The translations under genes were made by a program, and so were the position numbers. The notes beneath the pieces were generated by a model that was given only the letters and a program-made list of their open reading frames with translations, made no database searches and was not told the origin of the DNA. Positions 3,804 through 36,810 of a DNA stretch of 42,904 nt are shown in pieces. Positions within the stretch are counted from its first letter, which is position 1. Each line of letters opens with the position of its first letter. The stretch is from assembly GCA_009379895.1 (NCBI GenBank), contig WHSW01000008.1, positions 1 to 42,904 of the forward strand. The letters are read 5' to 3'. This DNA is from Solirubrobacterales bacterium. Its GTDB lineage: Bacteria; Actinomycetota; Thermoleophilia; Solirubrobacterales; 70-9.

Positions 3804-5039
3804 GTGCACCGCACGTACCGCTACCGCCTCTACCCGACCCGTCGCCAGCGCGAGGCGCTCGAGAGCCAGCTTCGCTTCGCCTGCAGCCTCTACAACGCCG
3901 CGCTTGAGCAGCGCCGCGATGCCTATCGCCGCTTGGGCAAGTCGCTCGGATATGGCGACCAGTCGGCGGAGCTGACCGAACTGCGCCGATCTGCCCCGGA
4001 GCTGTGCCCGCCGGAGGGGATGAACTACTGGTCGGCGCAGGAGGTGCTGCGTCGCCTCGATCGCGCCTTCGGCGCCTTCTTTCATCGTCTGCGGCGCGGA
4101 GAGAAGCCGGGCTACCCGCGATTCAGGTCGCACCGGCGCTTCAACACGCTGGCTTGGACTCAGAAGGGCAACGCGGGCGGCGTCGAGGTAACTGAGCAGG
4201 GACGCCTACGCTTGCAAGGCATCGGCTGCGTGAAGGTGAAGTGGCACCGCCCGATCCCCGCGGAGGCGACTCTCGGAGAGGTTCGGGTTACCCGCAAGGA
4301 AACAGGAGCGCGAGCGCGCTACCACGTCTCGGTCACGGCGAAGCTGCCGATCCCGGAGCCTCGCCCGGGCACGGGCGCGGCGGTTGGCATCGACATGGGC
4401 GTGCGGCGACTTGTCTCGCTCTCCACCGGCGAGCTGGTGTGTGGCCCGCGAGCAGGCCGCGCGAACGCGAAAAGGCTGCGACGCGGCTCGCGCAAGCTCG
4501 CCCGACGTAAGCGCGGCTCTGCGCGCAGGGCGAAGGCCGCGGCGCAGCTCGCACGCCACCGTGAGCGCGAGGCCAACCGACGACGAGATGCCGCCCACAA
4601 GCTGTCCCGGACCCTCGTCGAGCGCTTCGACCTGATTGCAGTCGAGAGGCTGCGGGTCGCCAACATGGTCCGCTCCGCCTCCGGCACGCTCGCAGCGCCC
4701 GGCGCCAATGTCGCGCAGAAGCGCGCTCTCAACCGGGAGATTGCCGACCAGGGCTGGGGGCAGTTGCTTTCGTACCTCGCCTACAAAGCGGAGGAGGCTG
4801 GTAGGCGCGTGGTCGCGGTCGAGCCGGCGGACACGTCGCGGACGTGCTGTGGATGCGGGGCTGTCGATGCGCGCAGCCGAGCTGGCCCGCGCTTTCGGTG
4901 TCTCGCCTGCGGACACGCCGAGGACGCCGACGTGAACGCCGCCAAGGTGATCCTCGCTCGCGCCCGTGCGCGGGAGGGAATCGAGCGGCCCGGACGGGGC
5001 CGTCAGGCCGCAACCGCCGCGCTTGCGGCGGTGGTCTGA
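3804..5039 (+). CDS. tnpB: TnpB, RNA-guided nuclease of IS200/IS605 element
   Basis: The 411-residue protein is full length for TnpB (ISDra2 TnpB is about 408). It starts at GTG 3804, 3 nt after tnpA. The N-terminus (YRLYPTRRQREAL, FACSLYNAALEQ) is typical. The RuvC triad is complete: D197 in GIDMGVRR, E281 in AVERLRVANM, and the Asp of EDADVNAA (about 374-376). A zinc ribbon is formed by C348/C351 and C366/C369. TnpB proteins are guided by an RNA from the element's right end and cleave DNA next to a transposon-associated motif, which retains the element at its site. With tnpA broken, this nuclease could still be active. Its 3' end overlaps the predicted guide-RNA scaffold. Confidence 0.93.
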   Translation: MHRTYRYRLYPTRRQREALESQLRFACSLYNAALEQRRDAYRRLGKSLGYGDQSAELTELRRSAPELCPPEGMNYWSAQEVLRRLDRAFGAFFHRLRRGEKPGYPRFRSHRRFNTLAWTQKGNAGGVEVTEQGRLRLQGIGCVKVKWHRPIPAEATLGEVRVTRKETGARARYHVSVTAKLPIPEPRPGTGAAVGIDMGVRRLVSLSTGELVCGPRAGRANAKRLRRGSRKLARRKRGSARRAKAAAQLARHREREANRRRDAAHKLSRTLVERFDLIAVERLRVANMVRSASGTLAAPGANVAQKRALNREIADQGWGQLLSYLAYKAEEAGRRVVAVEPADTSRTCCGCGAVDARSRAGPRFRCLACGHAEDADVNAAKVILARARAREGIERPGRGRQAATAALAAVV

Positions 5040-12392: not shown

Positions 12393-13575
<1,183 letters not shown>

Positions 13576-18678: not shown

Positions 18679-19470
18679 TTGAAGATCTGTTGTCTTGTCA
18701 AGGAGGTTCCGGACGCCGCTGTTCAGAAGCGGCTCGACCCTCAGACGAAGCGGCTCGACCGCTCCGGAGAGAAGAACCTCAATCCGTTCGACACCCACGG
18801 CATCGAGGCGGCGATGCAGATCCGCGAGGGCGGCAGGGCCGACGTGGACGAGATCGTCGCCGTGACGATGGGGCCCGAGAGCGCCGTCCGCGCGCTGCAC
18901 AAGGCGGTCGCGCTCGGCGCCGACCGCTCGCTGCACCTCAGCGACGCCGCGCTCGAGGGCTCGGACGTGTGCGCCACCGGCTACTCGCTGGCGAAGGTGC
19001 TCGAGTCCGAGCAGCCCGACCTGGTGCTGCTCGGCCAGCAGTCCGACGACGGCGAGTGCTACACGATCGGCGCCGTGGTCGCCGACCACCTGAAGATGCC
19101 CTCGCTGACGCAGGTGATCAAGATCGAGGTCGAGGACGGCACGCTCGTCTGCGAGCGCCAGGCCGAGTACGGCTACGACACGGTCGAGGTCGACCTGCCG
19201 GCGGTGATCTCGGTCGGGGACGCGATCAACGAGCCGCGCTACCCGAGCCTGAAGGCGATCATGGGGGCGAAGAAGAAGCCGCTCGACACGAAGGCCACCG
19301 GCGAGGTGGGCATCGACTCCGGCGAGGTCGGCGAGGCCGGCTCGAAGACGCAGGTGCTCGAGATCAACCCGCCGCCCGAGAAGGAGTCCGGCGAGGTGTT
19401 CGAGGACGAGGACACGGCCGAGACGGTCGCCAAGATCGTCGCCTGGCTCGATGAAAGGAAGCTGATCTAG
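18679..19470 (+). CDS. etfB: Electron transfer flavoprotein beta subunit
   Basis: The 263-residue EtfB begins MKICCLVKEVPDA. It carries the ALGADRSLHL and GQQSDDGECYTIGAVVADHL segments that bind AMP and contact EtfA, followed by the recognition-loop region VDLPAVISVGDAINEPRYPS. With EtfA it collects electrons from acyl-CoA dehydrogenases. TTG 18679 is fixed by AAGGAGG at 18665-18671, 7 nt upstream. The TGA-free junction with etfA (stop ends 19470, ATG 19471) shows an operon. Upstream lies a palindromic operator. Confidence 0.96.
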   Translation: MKICCLVKEVPDAAVQKRLDPQTKRLDRSGEKNLNPFDTHGIEAAMQIREGGRADVDEIVAVTMGPESAVRALHKAVALGADRSLHLSDAALEGSDVCATGYSLAKVLESEQPDLVLLGQQSDDGECYTIGAVVADHLKMPSLTQVIKIEVEDGTLVCERQAEYGYDTVEVDLPAVISVGDAINEPRYPSLKAIMGAKKKPLDTKATGEVGIDSGEVGEAGSKTQVLEINPPPEKESGEVFEDEDTAETVAKIVAWLDERKLI

Positions 19471-20448
19471 ATGGCTGGGATTCTCGTTTACGCCCTCCAC
19501 GACGACGAGGGCGACTTCAACAAGAACTCGCTCGGGGCGATCTCCGAGGCGGCCAGGCTCGCCGGCGAGCTGGGCTCCGAGGCGGCTGCGTTGGTGGTCG
19601 GCGAGGTGGCCGACGACGCGGCGGCCGCGCTTGGGGCCTACGGGGCCAAGCGCGTCTTTCGCGCCAAGTCGGTGCCCGAGGGCCTCGCGCAGCCGATCGT
19701 CGACGCGATGGCGAAGGTGATCGCCGACCAGGGCTTCTCCTACGCGCTGTTCGGCGGCGGCCTGCTGGGGTTCGAGATCGGGGCGGGCCTGACGGCGCGC
19801 ATGAACGCCGGGGTGACGATGGAGGTGACCGCGGTCAAGGTCGCCGACGGCAGGCTCGTCGCCGAGCGCCCCGTGCTGCAGGACTCCGCGATCGTCGACG
19901 TCGGCTACGTCGGCGAGCCGGGGATCATCATCGGCCGGCTGAACGCCTTCGACACTGACGAGCCGGGCGCCGGACGGGCCGAGGTGGTCGACGTCGAGGT
20001 CGAGCTCTCGGAGTGGTCGTCGCGGGCGCGGATGCGCACCCGCGGCGAGCAGCGCGGCGCCGACGTCAACATCGAGGACGCCGACATCCTGGTCGGCGGC
20101 GGCCGCGGGCTGGGCGAGAAGGACAACTTCAAGCTCGCCGAGGAGCTCGCGGAGGCGCTAGGGGGCGCCGTGGCGGCGACCCGCGCGGTGGTCGACGCCG
20201 GCTGGTACCCCTACGCGGCGCAGATCGGCCAGACCGGCAAGACGGTGGCGCCGAAGCTCTACCTCGCCGCCGGGATCTCGGGCGCGATCCAGCACAAGGT
20301 CGGGATGCAGAGCTCGGAGAGCATCCTCGCCGTCAACAAGGACCCGAACGCCCCGATCTTCGAGTTCTGCGATCTCGGCGTGGTCGGGGATCTGCACAAG
20401 ATCCTCCCCAAGCTGACCGAGGCCGTGAAGGCGAAGAAGGGCGGCTGA
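19471..20448 (+). CDS. etfA: Electron transfer flavoprotein alpha subunit
   Basis: The 325-residue EtfA has the N-terminal domain that packs on EtfB (LVYALHDDEGDFNKNSLGAI) and the C-terminal FAD domain. The latter shows the signature GGGRGLGEKDNFKL, AATRAVVDAGWYP, IGQTGKTVAPKLY, GISGAIQHKVGM and VNKDPNAPIFEFCDLGVVGD. All FAD-contact motifs are present. It directly follows etfB and precedes the ETF-quinone oxidoreductase, giving a complete route from acyl-CoA dehydrogenase to the quinone pool. Confidence 0.96.
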   Translation: MAGILVYALHDDEGDFNKNSLGAISEAARLAGELGSEAAALVVGEVADDAAAALGAYGAKRVFRAKSVPEGLAQPIVDAMAKVIADQGFSYALFGGGLLGFEIGAGLTARMNAGVTMEVTAVKVADGRLVAERPVLQDSAIVDVGYVGEPGIIIGRLNAFDTDEPGAGRAEVVDVEVELSEWSSRARMRTRGEQRGADVNIEDADILVGGGRGLGEKDNFKLAEELAEALGGAVAATRAVVDAGWYPYAAQIGQTGKTVAPKLYLAAGISGAIQHKVGMQSSESILAVNKDPNAPIFEFCDLGVVGDLHKILPKLTEAVKAKKGG

Positions 20449-20508: not shown

Positions 20509-22206
20509 ATGCCAGTGGAACCGGCCCAGTATCCGCCCCCGTTCGACGAGCGCGAGCTGATCGCCGAGCCGACCGATCCCGAGGACGAGCGGATCGAGGT
20601 CGGGGTCGCGATCGTCGGCGGCGGCCCGGCCGGGCTGGCGTGCGCGAACCGCCTCATGGACCTGCTCGCCGACGAGCCCGAGCTTGCCGAGAAGCTCGGC
20701 GAGGTCCCGGTGGCGGTGATCGAGAAGGGCAAGGCGTGCGGGGCGCACACCCTGAGCGGCGCCAACCTGCGCCCCGGCCCGATGCGCGAGCTGTTTCCGG
20801 ACCTCGAGCCGGACGACTGGCCCTTCGCCTACCAGGAGGTGACCAAGGATGCGGTCTACCTGCTCACCAAGCGCGCGGCGCTGCCGCTCAAGCCGATGCC
20901 GCCGAACTTCCGCAACCACGGCAACTACGTGATCTCGGTCGCCAAGCTGTCGCGCTTTCTCGCCGAGCGGGCGGAGGAGAAGGGCGCCTACGTGCTTACC
21001 GAGACGGTCGCCGACCGGCTGCTGGTCTCCGATCGCATCGTCCGCGGGGTGCGCTCCGGCGACCGCGGCCGCGGCCGCGACGGCGAGCCGCTCGGCAACT
21101 TCGAGCCCGGCTCGGACGTGGTCGCCAAGGCGACCGTGCTCGCCGAGGGCACCCTCGGCCACCTGACCCAGGGCGCGCTCGACTACTTCGACCTGCACGG
21201 CCGGCTCCCGGTTCGCTGGGAGCTCGGCGTCAAGGAGGTCTGGGAGGTCCCCGAGCCTCTCGACCGCGTGATCCACACGATGGGCTGGCCGCTGCGCAAG
21301 CGCGCGAAGTGGAACGAGTTCGGCGGCAGCTTCATCTACCCGATGGGCGACGACAAGATCTCCATCGGGCTGGTGATCGGGCTCGACTACACCGACTCGA
21401 CACTCTCCTGCCACGACCTGCTCCAGGAGCTGAAGACGCATCCCTTCGTCAAGAAGATGCTCGCGGGCGGCAAGCGGGTGGCGTGGGGGGCGAAGACGAT
21501 CCCCTCCGGCGGCTACTACTCGATGCCGCGCAGCCTCTCGGTCCCCGGGATGGCGATCGCCGGCGACGCCGCGAACATGGTCAACGTGCCGACCCTGAAG
21601 GGGATCCACTACGCGATCCAGGCCGGCATGTACGCGGCCGAGGCGATCGTCGAGGCGCTTCGCAACGACTCGGTCAACCTCGAGGCCTACGACGAGCGGG
21701 TCCGCAAGTCGCAGATCGACTCGGACCTGTTCGAGTCGCGCAACATGCGCCCGCCGTTCTCGAAGGGCTTCTTCGTCGGCGGCGCGATGGCGAGCGCGAT
21801 GACGGTGACCAAGGGCCTGTTCCCGGGCGGCACCTGGAAGTACGAGCCCGACGCCGAGATCGAGATGGCCGACGGGGGCGCCGACCGCGACTACCCCGAG
21901 CCCGACAACGAGCTCACCTTCAACAAGCTCGACTCGGTCTTCCTCTCGGGCAACGCGACCCGCGACGACGCCCCGAACCACATCAAGATCCAGACCCACG
22001 TCCCGCGCGAGCTGGCCAAGACCTGGGTCAACCTGTGCCCGGCGCAGGTCTATGAGATCCCCGACGACCAGCTCGCCTCGGGCGCGCCCGAGGTCGACGT
22101 CCACGTCACGGCCTCGAACTGCGTCCAGTGCGGCGCGATCAACGCCAAGGGCGCGCGGCTGACGATGCCCGAGGGCGGCGACGGGCCGCTGTATCAGGAG
22201 GTCTGA
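20509..22206 (+). CDS. Electron transfer flavoprotein-quinone oxidoreductase
   Basis: The 565-residue flavoprotein has an N-terminal FAD-binding VGGGPAGLAC (36-45). The ETF-QO core follows (GAHTLSGANL, NFRNHGNYVISV, EGTLGHLT, GGSFIYPMGDDKISIGLVIGLDY, AGDAANMVNVPTLKGIHYAIQ), then the C-terminal ferredoxin-like part. It moves electrons from ETF to quinone at the membrane. The cluster motif is unusual. C510 (CPAQVYE), C538 and C541 (NCVQC) are present, but the fourth ligand of the normal CxxCxxC is I544. A 3Fe-4S or a modified 4Fe-4S cluster is possible. It follows etfA by 60 nt. Confidence 0.92.
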   Translation: MPVEPAQYPPPFDERELIAEPTDPEDERIEVGVAIVGGGPAGLACANRLMDLLADEPELAEKLGEVPVAVIEKGKACGAHTLSGANLRPGPMRELFPDLEPDDWPFAYQEVTKDAVYLLTKRAALPLKPMPPNFRNHGNYVISVAKLSRFLAERAEEKGAYVLTETVADRLLVSDRIVRGVRSGDRGRGRDGEPLGNFEPGSDVVAKATVLAEGTLGHLTQGALDYFDLHGRLPVRWELGVKEVWEVPEPLDRVIHTMGWPLRKRAKWNEFGGSFIYPMGDDKISIGLVIGLDYTDSTLSCHDLLQELKTHPFVKKMLAGGKRVAWGAKTIPSGGYYSMPRSLSVPGMAIAGDAANMVNVPTLKGIHYAIQAGMYAAEAIVEALRNDSVNLEAYDERVRKSQIDSDLFESRNMRPPFSKGFFVGGAMASAMTVTKGLFPGGTWKYEPDAEIEMADGGADRDYPEPDNELTFNKLDSVFLSGNATRDDAPNHIKIQTHVPRELAKTWVNLCPAQVYEIPDDQLASGAPEVDVHVTASNCVQCGAINAKGARLTMPEGGDGPLYQEV

Positions 22207-35926: not shown

Positions 35927-35969
35927 ACTTATCGTCGCTTACCGGTGATTTCTCGCCCCGGCGGCCGGA

Positions 35970-36810
35970 TCAGTCCGCCTCGGCCTGGCGCAGCAGACGG
36001 CGGATGGTGGCGGCCGCGCTCGCCGGGTCCTCGGCGAGGCGGGCATCGGCGAAGCGGCGCACCGTGTAGCCGAGGAGGCCGAGCTCGATGTCGCGGTCGC
36101 GGTCTTCGCGAAACGCCTCGCCCGCCGTGGTACGCGTAGCCGTCGAGCTCGACGATCAGTCGCTGCGGGCGCCAGAGGAAGTCGACCGTGAACAGATCGA
36201 CGCGGACATTGACCTCGGGATCCGGCGGACGGTGCCGCTTGAGCATCAGCAGGAAATCGCGCTCGAGCTCGCTCCGCGTTCGGTCGGTCTCGATCCCGGC
36301 CAGCGGATAGCCCGCGATCTCGGCCTCGCGGATCGCCCCTCGCACGGTCGCGGGAGCGGTGGTGCGCCACAGGTCGACGATCGTCCTCGCCGGGGAGGTG
36401 AGCGGGATCCCGTCGCGAGCCCTGCGCACGGTGCCAGGCAGTGAGACCGGGCGGTGGATGCGGATGCCACTCCGCCGGCCACGCCCTCCGCGGCCGGGAA
36501 CCGAGACGTGGATCGGGCCGTCCGAGGACGACAGCATTCCCCACAGCTCGGCGGCGCTTCGGTGGCCGAGCAGCGCGTCCGCCCCGCAGGCGAGCGTCGC
36601 CGCCTTCCAGCGGCCCCGCTCGCTCAGGCCGGGGTGGCCGACCGCGTAGACGCCCCTGTGGATCCGGTGCAATCGCCCGGCGGCCACCCTGCGCTGGATT
36701 CCGGCGGGCGAGAGCCCCGCGCCAAGCAGCTGCTCGAAGGTGATCACGCCGTGCTGGCGCGCGGCGATCCGGGCGATCAGTCGATCGGGTGGGGCGAGTT
36801 GTCTTCGCAT
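35970..36810 (-). pseudogene. AbiEi-antitoxin-like / DUF559 protein, single-base frameshift
   Basis: From ATG 36810 the first 225 residues read as one frame. They begin with a winged helix of the AbiEi type ([33 protein letters not shown]). The middle contains ALLGHRSAAELWG, and the start of a DUF559 (Vsr-like endonuclease fold) domain reads VDFLWRPQRLIVELDGYAYHGG. Removing one G near 36117-36121 (GAGGCG to GAGCG) restores AFREDRDRDIELGLLGYTVR to a TGA at 35970-35972, a normal 279-residue protein. As written the end is scrambled and runs on to 35929. Such proteins are abundant in actinobacteria without known function. It sits inside the conserved rpmE-prfA block, so it is probably an insertion. 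Confidence 0.82.

What the first reader, a model, noticed from the sequence alone, without database searches (positions are those of the whole stretch)
22030..22206. ETF-quinone oxidoreductase lacks one cluster cysteine
Canonical ETF-QO has one Cys in CPAxVYE and three in CxxCxxC. Here C510, C538 and C541 are present but the last position is I544 (NCVQCGAIN). The DNA is unambiguous and the rest of the protein is intact, so the cluster may be 3Fe-4S or use another ligand.
Basis: partly seen in the sequence, partly recalled or inferred. Interest (0 to 1): 0.52.

Follow-up and report, generated by a model that had tools for sequence, protein, structure and literature searches.

The report
Three-cysteine respiratory enzyme, fixed class-wide
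A bacterial enzyme that feeds electrons from fatty-acid breakdown into respiration lacks one of the four cysteines that normally hold its iron-sulfur cluster, and the same replacement is fixed across a whole class of bacteria, so it is probably a working variant with a different cluster rather than a mistake.

Summary
The 565-aa ORF at 20509-22206 is an ETF:quinone oxidoreductase with C510, C538 and C541 but Ile at 544, where pig ETF-QO has the fourth cysteine. It is no sequencing error. All 79 distinct full-length homologues of this type, from nine families of the window's class, have Ile there; the three other cysteines are invariant and no other cysteine is conserved. The motif occurs in 302 of 399 class genomes. 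Only 7 of 399, all in one family, have the canonical four-cysteine motif, on a separate branch of the gene tree. The eight genomes with a clear ETF-QO but neither motif were checked: seven run off a contig end first, one is broken. The gene lies in an etfB-etfA-etfQO cluster, and no EtfD-like alternative was seen in this genome. Invariant Cys plus invariant Ile argues for a constrained three-cysteine cluster site, most likely [3Fe-4S], as at the quinone-side cluster of succinate dehydrogenase, where Ile, Val or Thr replaces the cysteine. Cluster type is inferred, not shown; a [4Fe-4S] with a non-cysteine ligand remains possible. The structure model failed, and other phyla could be sampled only through plasmids.

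The parts
18679..19470 (+). etfB-like gene (ETF beta subunit; TTG start as listed)
   Evidence: PF01012 E 1.5e-38; ORF list
19471..20448 (+). etfA-like gene (ETF alpha subunit, FAD domain), directly upstream of the ETF-QO gene
   Evidence: PF00766 E 9.6e-36 and PF01012 E 1.1e-23; also found upstream of the ETF-QO in all 34 same-family loci L001-L034
20509..22206 (+). ETF:quinone oxidoreductase, 565 aa, three-cysteine type
   Evidence: PF21162 E 1.6e-25 and PF05187 E 1.5e-11; 2gmh E 1.7e-84; only match in the assembly
21910..22197 (+). Fe-S (ferredoxin-like) domain of the ETF-QO, residues 468-563
   Evidence: PF05187 match
22036..22038 (+). Cys510 of CPAQVYE, cluster ligand by homology
   Evidence: invariant in 79 of 79 and in 10 of 10 canonical
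22120..22131 (+). Cys538 and Cys541 (CVQC), cluster ligands by homology
   Evidence: invariant in 79 of 79 and in 10 of 10 canonical
22138..22140 (+). Ile544 (ATC) at the position of the fourth cluster cysteine
   Evidence: I in 79 of 79, C in 10 of 10 canonical; codons ATC 75, ATT 4, ATA 1 among 80 distinct DNA contexts

Best explanation
The protein belongs to a class-wide subfamily of ETF:quinone oxidoreductase that does the usual job, taking electrons from ETF (reduced by acyl-CoA dehydrogenases) and passing them through an Fe-S cluster and FAD to the membrane quinone. Its cluster site is built for three cysteine ligands: C510, C538 and C541, with Ile544 filling the place of the fourth. Most likely it holds a stable cuboidal [3Fe-4S]1+/0 cluster in place of [4Fe-4S]2+/1+. 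Shown: identity of the gene, the missing Cys, its fixation, the invariance of the other three Cys, absence of another conserved Cys, and inheritance as one clade. Inferred: that a cluster is bound, that it is [3Fe-4S], that it carries electrons, and that it is tuned to the quinone of these bacteria (probably menaquinone, recalled for Actinomycetota generally).
For: All 79 distinct full-length homologues of this type have C510, C538, C541 and I544 invariant; no V or L at 544. The motif is in 302 of 399 class genomes, the canonical motif in 7 of 399, and no genome row shows both. All eight genomes with a clear ETF-QO and neither motif were examined: 7 end at a contig edge before residue 538, 1 is broken after residue 516. 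One clade in the tree, support 100/100, with families mostly holding together. etfA lies upstream in 34 of 34 same-family loci. No EtfD-like protein was seen in G000: its CCG matches are two in one 303-aa frame on the sdhB contig and one weak hit; G059 (95% complete) has only one weak hit. Precedent for a non-Cys residue at a missing Cys of a quinone-side cluster: E. coli SdhB CHSIMNC, pig CHTIMNC, FrdB CTFVGYC, M. smegmatis CRTTFNC (species names of chains recalled where the table gives none); FrdB C158, C204 and C210 bind [3Fe-4S] (PMC1459171, passages).
Against: No spectroscopy or structure exists in these results; the AlphaFold model was useless (mean pLDDT 37). A non-cysteine fourth ligand (solvent, or an Asp/Glu such as D303 or D486, or T/N/S545) cannot be excluded. 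The whole local block changed, not one residue, so the loop may fold differently. In SdhB/FrdB the missing Cys is the middle one of CxxCxxC, here the last, so the analogy is not exact.
Confidence: 0.6

Rival explanations
1. The site holds a [4Fe-4S] cluster with three Cys and a non-cysteine fourth ligand (water/hydroxide as in aconitase, or a side chain from elsewhere in the protein).
For: Three-cysteine [4Fe-4S] sites are well known (aconitase, radical SAM; recalled). Clade-specific invariant polar residues exist, e.g. S300, D303, R485, D486 and T552, and 545 is always T, N or S.
Against: No Cys or His is both invariant and specific to the clade: the only invariant C/H are H256, H302, H491 and the three Cys, and none of the three His appears in the clade-specific list. 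The residue at the ligand position is invariantly aliphatic Ile.
Confidence: 0.28
2. The cluster is lost or vestigial and the enzyme moves electrons from ETF to quinone through FAD alone.
For: FixC (7koe_C) aligns to the FAD/quinone part only, query residues 28-420. Loss of one ligand can be a first step of decay.
Against: The other three Cys are invariant in 79 of 79, and so are surrounding residues such as P511, A512, Y515, N537, G542 and E555, which is not expected of a decaying site.
Confidence: 0.08
3. The Ile is a sequencing or assembly error in a metagenome bin.
For: The window has at least one apparent frameshift elsewhere, in a thiolase gene near 12.9 kb.
Against: The same residue is in all 79 distinct homologues of this type and the motif is in 302 of 399 genomes, with synonymous codons ATC, ATT and ATA.
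Confidence: 0.01

Closest known systems
Canonical ETF-QO (ETFDH; pig 2gmh; PF05187 + PF21162)
   Same: Same domain order, residues 28-563 aligned to 33-582 of 2gmh at E 1.7e-84; C510, C538, C541, CPAxVYE and GPxY near the C-terminus kept.
   Different: Last Cys of CxxCxxC is Ile; KTCD block is GAI[TNS]; about 35-39% identity to the best plasmid-borne canonical-type relatives.
Iron-sulfur subunit of succinate dehydrogenase / fumarate reductase (SdhB/FrdB), quinone-side [3Fe-4S] site
   Same: Three Cys with Ile, Val or Thr where a CxxCxxC cysteine would be; cluster passes electrons towards quinone. The reverse swap is described in E-type enzymes, where the cysteine pattern implies a second [4Fe-4S] (PMC2680327, passage).
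   Different: Not claimed as a homologue of ETF-QO; missing Cys is the middle one of CxxCxxC, here the last.
EtfD (mycobacterial ETF:menaquinone oxidoreductase)
   Same: Same task, ETF to menaquinone, in other Actinomycetota (PMC13083937, passages).
   Different: Not homologous to ETF-QO (stated there); its linear [3Fe-4S] is bound by four Cys of CCG domains.
FixC/FixX
   Same: FixC is related over the FAD part (7koe_C, E 3.5e-27); a FixX-like hit in the phylum has CFECGAC (L064), similar to CVQCGAI but with the Cys.
   Different: FixX is a separate ferredoxin (recalled) and keeps the fourth Cys in that example.

Membership tests
ETF-QO (ETFDH family) | FAD domain plus ETF-QO ubiquinone-binding domain PF21162 | tested here: met
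   PF21162 89.9 bits against a cut-off of 27.7
ETF-QO (ETFDH family) | C-terminal 4Fe-4S domain PF05187 over its curated cut-off | tested here: met
   44.8 bits against 24, lower than the 131 bits of the canonical class member G010
ETF-QO (ETFDH family) | Four Cys ligands for a [4Fe-4S] cluster (CPAxVYE + CxxCxxC) | tested here: not met
   three of four; Ile544 in 79 of 79. Hence filed as a variant of the family, not as a canonical member
ETF-QO (ETFDH family) | Genomic link with etfA/etfB | tested here: met
   etfB-etfA-etfQO order in the window; etfA upstream in 34 of 34 same-family loci
ETF-QO (ETFDH family) | ETF:quinone reductase activity | not testable with these tools
   needs purified protein
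[3Fe-4S] protein (works like the SdhB/FrdB site) | Three conserved Cys and no fourth conserved Cys | tested here: met
[3Fe-4S] protein (works like the SdhB/FrdB site) | [3Fe-4S] seen by EPR or structure | not testable with these tools
   needs purified protein; the structure prediction failed
EtfD | CCG domains | tested here: not met
   no CCG domain among the Pfam matches; membrane helices were not examined

The most novel reading that the evidence does not exclude
A whole bacterial class runs fatty-acid oxidation through an ETF:quinone oxidoreductase whose cluster is a native cuboidal [3Fe-4S]: a respiratory entry point that has exchanged [4Fe-4S] for the cluster type found at the quinone side of complex II, presumably to match the redox potential of its quinone.
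Probability: 0.5. Interest if true: 0.6.

Novelty: new variant of a known kind. Interest (0 to 1): 0.47.

Why it matters
ETF-QO is the main entry of fatty-acid and amino-acid electrons into the respiratory quinone pool, and in humans its loss causes multiple acyl-CoA dehydrogenase deficiency (recalled). A natural, fixed three-cysteine version gives a ready comparison for what the fourth cysteine does: whether cluster type sets the potential, which quinone is used, and whether a [3Fe-4S] can carry this reaction. I found no paper describing it in the held library (search listings), which lacks most subscription journals.

Tried and rejected
Sequence error: rejected by independent genomes. Fourth Cys elsewhere: C45, C77 and C301 not conserved. 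Relatives outside the phylum: genome contigs gave four near relatives, viral contigs none; plasmids gave 433 records, all under 60% identity. Only three plasmid records were read at sequence level and all three were canonical; a search with the C-terminal part gave 199 records, all under 60% identity, not read further. So whether the three-Cys type exists in other phyla is open. In 396 phylum genomes PF05187 matched 42; by my count of the rows 35 are of the same class or closer and 7 outside, the 7 with E-values from 9.5e-11 to 1.5e-6 over part of the model. EtfD as an alternative route: CCG domains occur in 61 of 61 class genomes, so absence holds only for the genomes looked at closely (G093 and G157 have longer CCG proteins that I did not identify). 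Two classic ETF-QO papers (structure; midpoint-potential mutants) are not held. Recalled and from no call: pig/human ligand numbering, a Thr-to-Ala mutation next to the last Cys lowering the cluster potential in Rhodobacter ETF-QO (the clade has Ala543 in 79 of 79 where the 10 canonical have Thr), FrdB Val-to-Cys conversion to [4Fe-4S], quinone types, the class name Thermoleophilia.

Full report
What is there. The ORF at 20509-22206 (+) encodes 565 aa. It carries the ETF-QO quinone-binding domain PF21162 (89.9 bits, cut-off 27.7) and the ETF-QO Fe-S domain PF05187 (44.8 bits, cut-off 24). Its best solved relative is pig ETF-QO 2gmh (species recalled), E 1.7e-84 over residues 28-563, far ahead of FixC 7koe at 3.5e-27. 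In that alignment CPAQVYE lies on CPAGVYE and NCVQCGAIN on NCVHCKTCD, so the last cysteine of CxxCxxC is Ile544.

Setting. Upstream lie etfB (18679-19470) and etfA (19471-20448). The window also holds a methylmalonyl-CoA mutase gene, an acyl-CoA dehydrogenase and a thiolase, which suits propionate and fatty-acid oxidation. The window is contig C599 of a 4.09-Mb, 610-contig, 88%-complete assembly in which this is the only match to the protein. Near relatives bear the title Solirubrobacterales.

Is the Ile fixed? In the first 34 loci (L001-L034, including the window's own and some repeats of the same sequence) all have NCVQCGAI. After removing identical sequences, 89 full-length proteins were aligned: 79 have Ile and 10 have Cys at this column. 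The 79 come from families f1 (31), f2 (13), f3 (7), f4 (2), f5 (10), f7 (8), f10 (3), f11 (4) and f12 (1), by my labels from the search tables used for the tree. The 10 with Cys are 7 from family f8 of the same class and 3 plasmid-borne proteobacterial genes. C510, C538 and C541 are invariant in all 89; C45, C77 and C301 are Cys in 52, 29 and 17 of the 79. Ile544 never varies, even to Val or Leu, while its codon does (ATC 75, ATT 4, ATA 1 of 80 distinct contexts; that pattern accepts only Ile codons, so it speaks to codons, not to the residue).

Wider census. A degenerate DNA pattern for C[VIM][QH]CGAIxAxG matched 302 of 399 class genomes; in every row shown the backwards control gave 0. A pattern for the canonical NCxHCKTCD matched 7 of 399, all in f8, and no row matches both patterns. 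Comparing with the protein search of the same 399 genomes (351 with some match at E up to 0.001, many of them FixC-like), eight genomes had a clear ETF-QO (best E below 1e-35) but neither motif. All eight were fetched: in seven the match stops within 19 bases of the end of the held stretch, before residue 538, and one (G227, L137) runs into a stop just after CPAQVYE with no motif in the held flank. A ninth (G253) has only a C-terminal fragment at a contig end that begins with GAI. I found no intact intermediate.

History. In a 72-row tree (f1 thinned from 31 to 14 rows) the three-Cys proteins form one side of a branch with support 100/100. The families group as expected for mostly vertical descent, except f2 and f3, which need two changes each (L078 of f3 lies within f2). 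The f8 proteins sit with the canonical plasmid genes on the other side. The six f8 loci with an upstream EtfA in reach have one only 38-43% identical to the window's, which suits a separate origin. With only ten canonical sequences the tree cannot say where the change arose.

How it most likely works. By homology, C510, C538 and C541 hold a cluster that accepts electrons from ETF and hands them on through FAD to quinone (ETF-QO mechanism, recalled). Loss of one ligand with strict retention of three is the pattern of a three-ligand cluster. The best precedent is complex II: in the alignment of this genome's own SdhB to solved structures, the quinone-side [3Fe-4S] motif reads CHSIMNC in 1nek, CHTIMNC in 1zoy, CTFVGYC in the fumarate reductase 1kf6 and CRTTFNC in 6lum, with Ile, Val or Thr where a Cys would be. 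A paper lists C158, C204 and C210 as the [3Fe-4S] ligands of FrdB 1kf6 (PMC1459171, passages). The reverse swap is described too: in E-type enzymes the cysteine pattern implies a second [4Fe-4S] instead of [3Fe-4S] (PMC2680327, passage), and this genome's SdhB has CTHCFSC there. So an Ile at this kind of position is compatible with a stable [3Fe-4S]. I put this at 0.6, and a [4Fe-4S] with a non-Cys ligand at 0.28.

Does it matter for the cell? In G000 the CCG-domain matches are two in one 303-aa frame on the contig of sdhB (SdhE-like by position) plus one weak hit (E 1.4e-4). In G059 (95% complete) there is one weak hit only. Neither looks like the EtfD that serves this task in mycobacteria (EtfD described in PMC13083937, passages). 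Thus in these genomes the three-Cys ETF-QO is the only ETF:quinone route I could find; G000 is only 88% complete, and G093 and G157 do have longer CCG proteins that I did not identify.

Papers. Passages only were read of PMC13083937, PMC8097209, PMC2680327, PMC13111528, PMC3538594, PMC1459171 and PMC5736913; all others were seen as search listings. PMC8097209 (passages) gives the g = 2.016 signal used here as the EPR mark of [3Fe-4S]1+ and warns that a [3Fe-4S] can be a purification artefact.

Limits. The AlphaFold model failed (pLDDT 37), so no distance argument can be made. Phyla other than this one could be sampled only through plasmids. Cluster type is chemistry and needs the bench. Verdict: observation confirmed, a new variant of a known family, moderately interesting because it is class-wide and directly testable.

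Noticed in passing
window 3804-5039 (+): IS605 OrfB/TnpB-like transposase (PF01385, PF07282 Cas12f1-like TNB, PF12323).
   Followed up: no
window 12393-13575 (+): Thiolase gene split over two frames: N-terminal part at 12393-12980 (PF00108) and C-terminal part at 12913-13575 (PF02803), an apparent frameshift near 12.9 kb, pseudogene or assembly error.
   Followed up: partly
L118 (G000:C71): The genome's SdhB has CTHCFSC where classical SdhB has the [3Fe-4S] motif with Ile/Val/Thr, and a 303-aa CCG protein lies downstream: an E-type succinate:quinone reductase pattern.
   Followed up: partly
L035, L094-L099 (family f8): One family of the class carries a canonical four-Cys ETF-QO instead; six of these seven loci show an upstream EtfA 38-43% identical to the window's.
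   Followed up: partly
L137 (G227): ETF-QO reading frame stops just after CPAQVYE, with no cluster loop in the held flank.
   Followed up: partly
window 35929-36810 (-): Protein with an AbiEi-type antitoxin/regulator domain (PF13338, E 3.6e-12).
   Followed up: no
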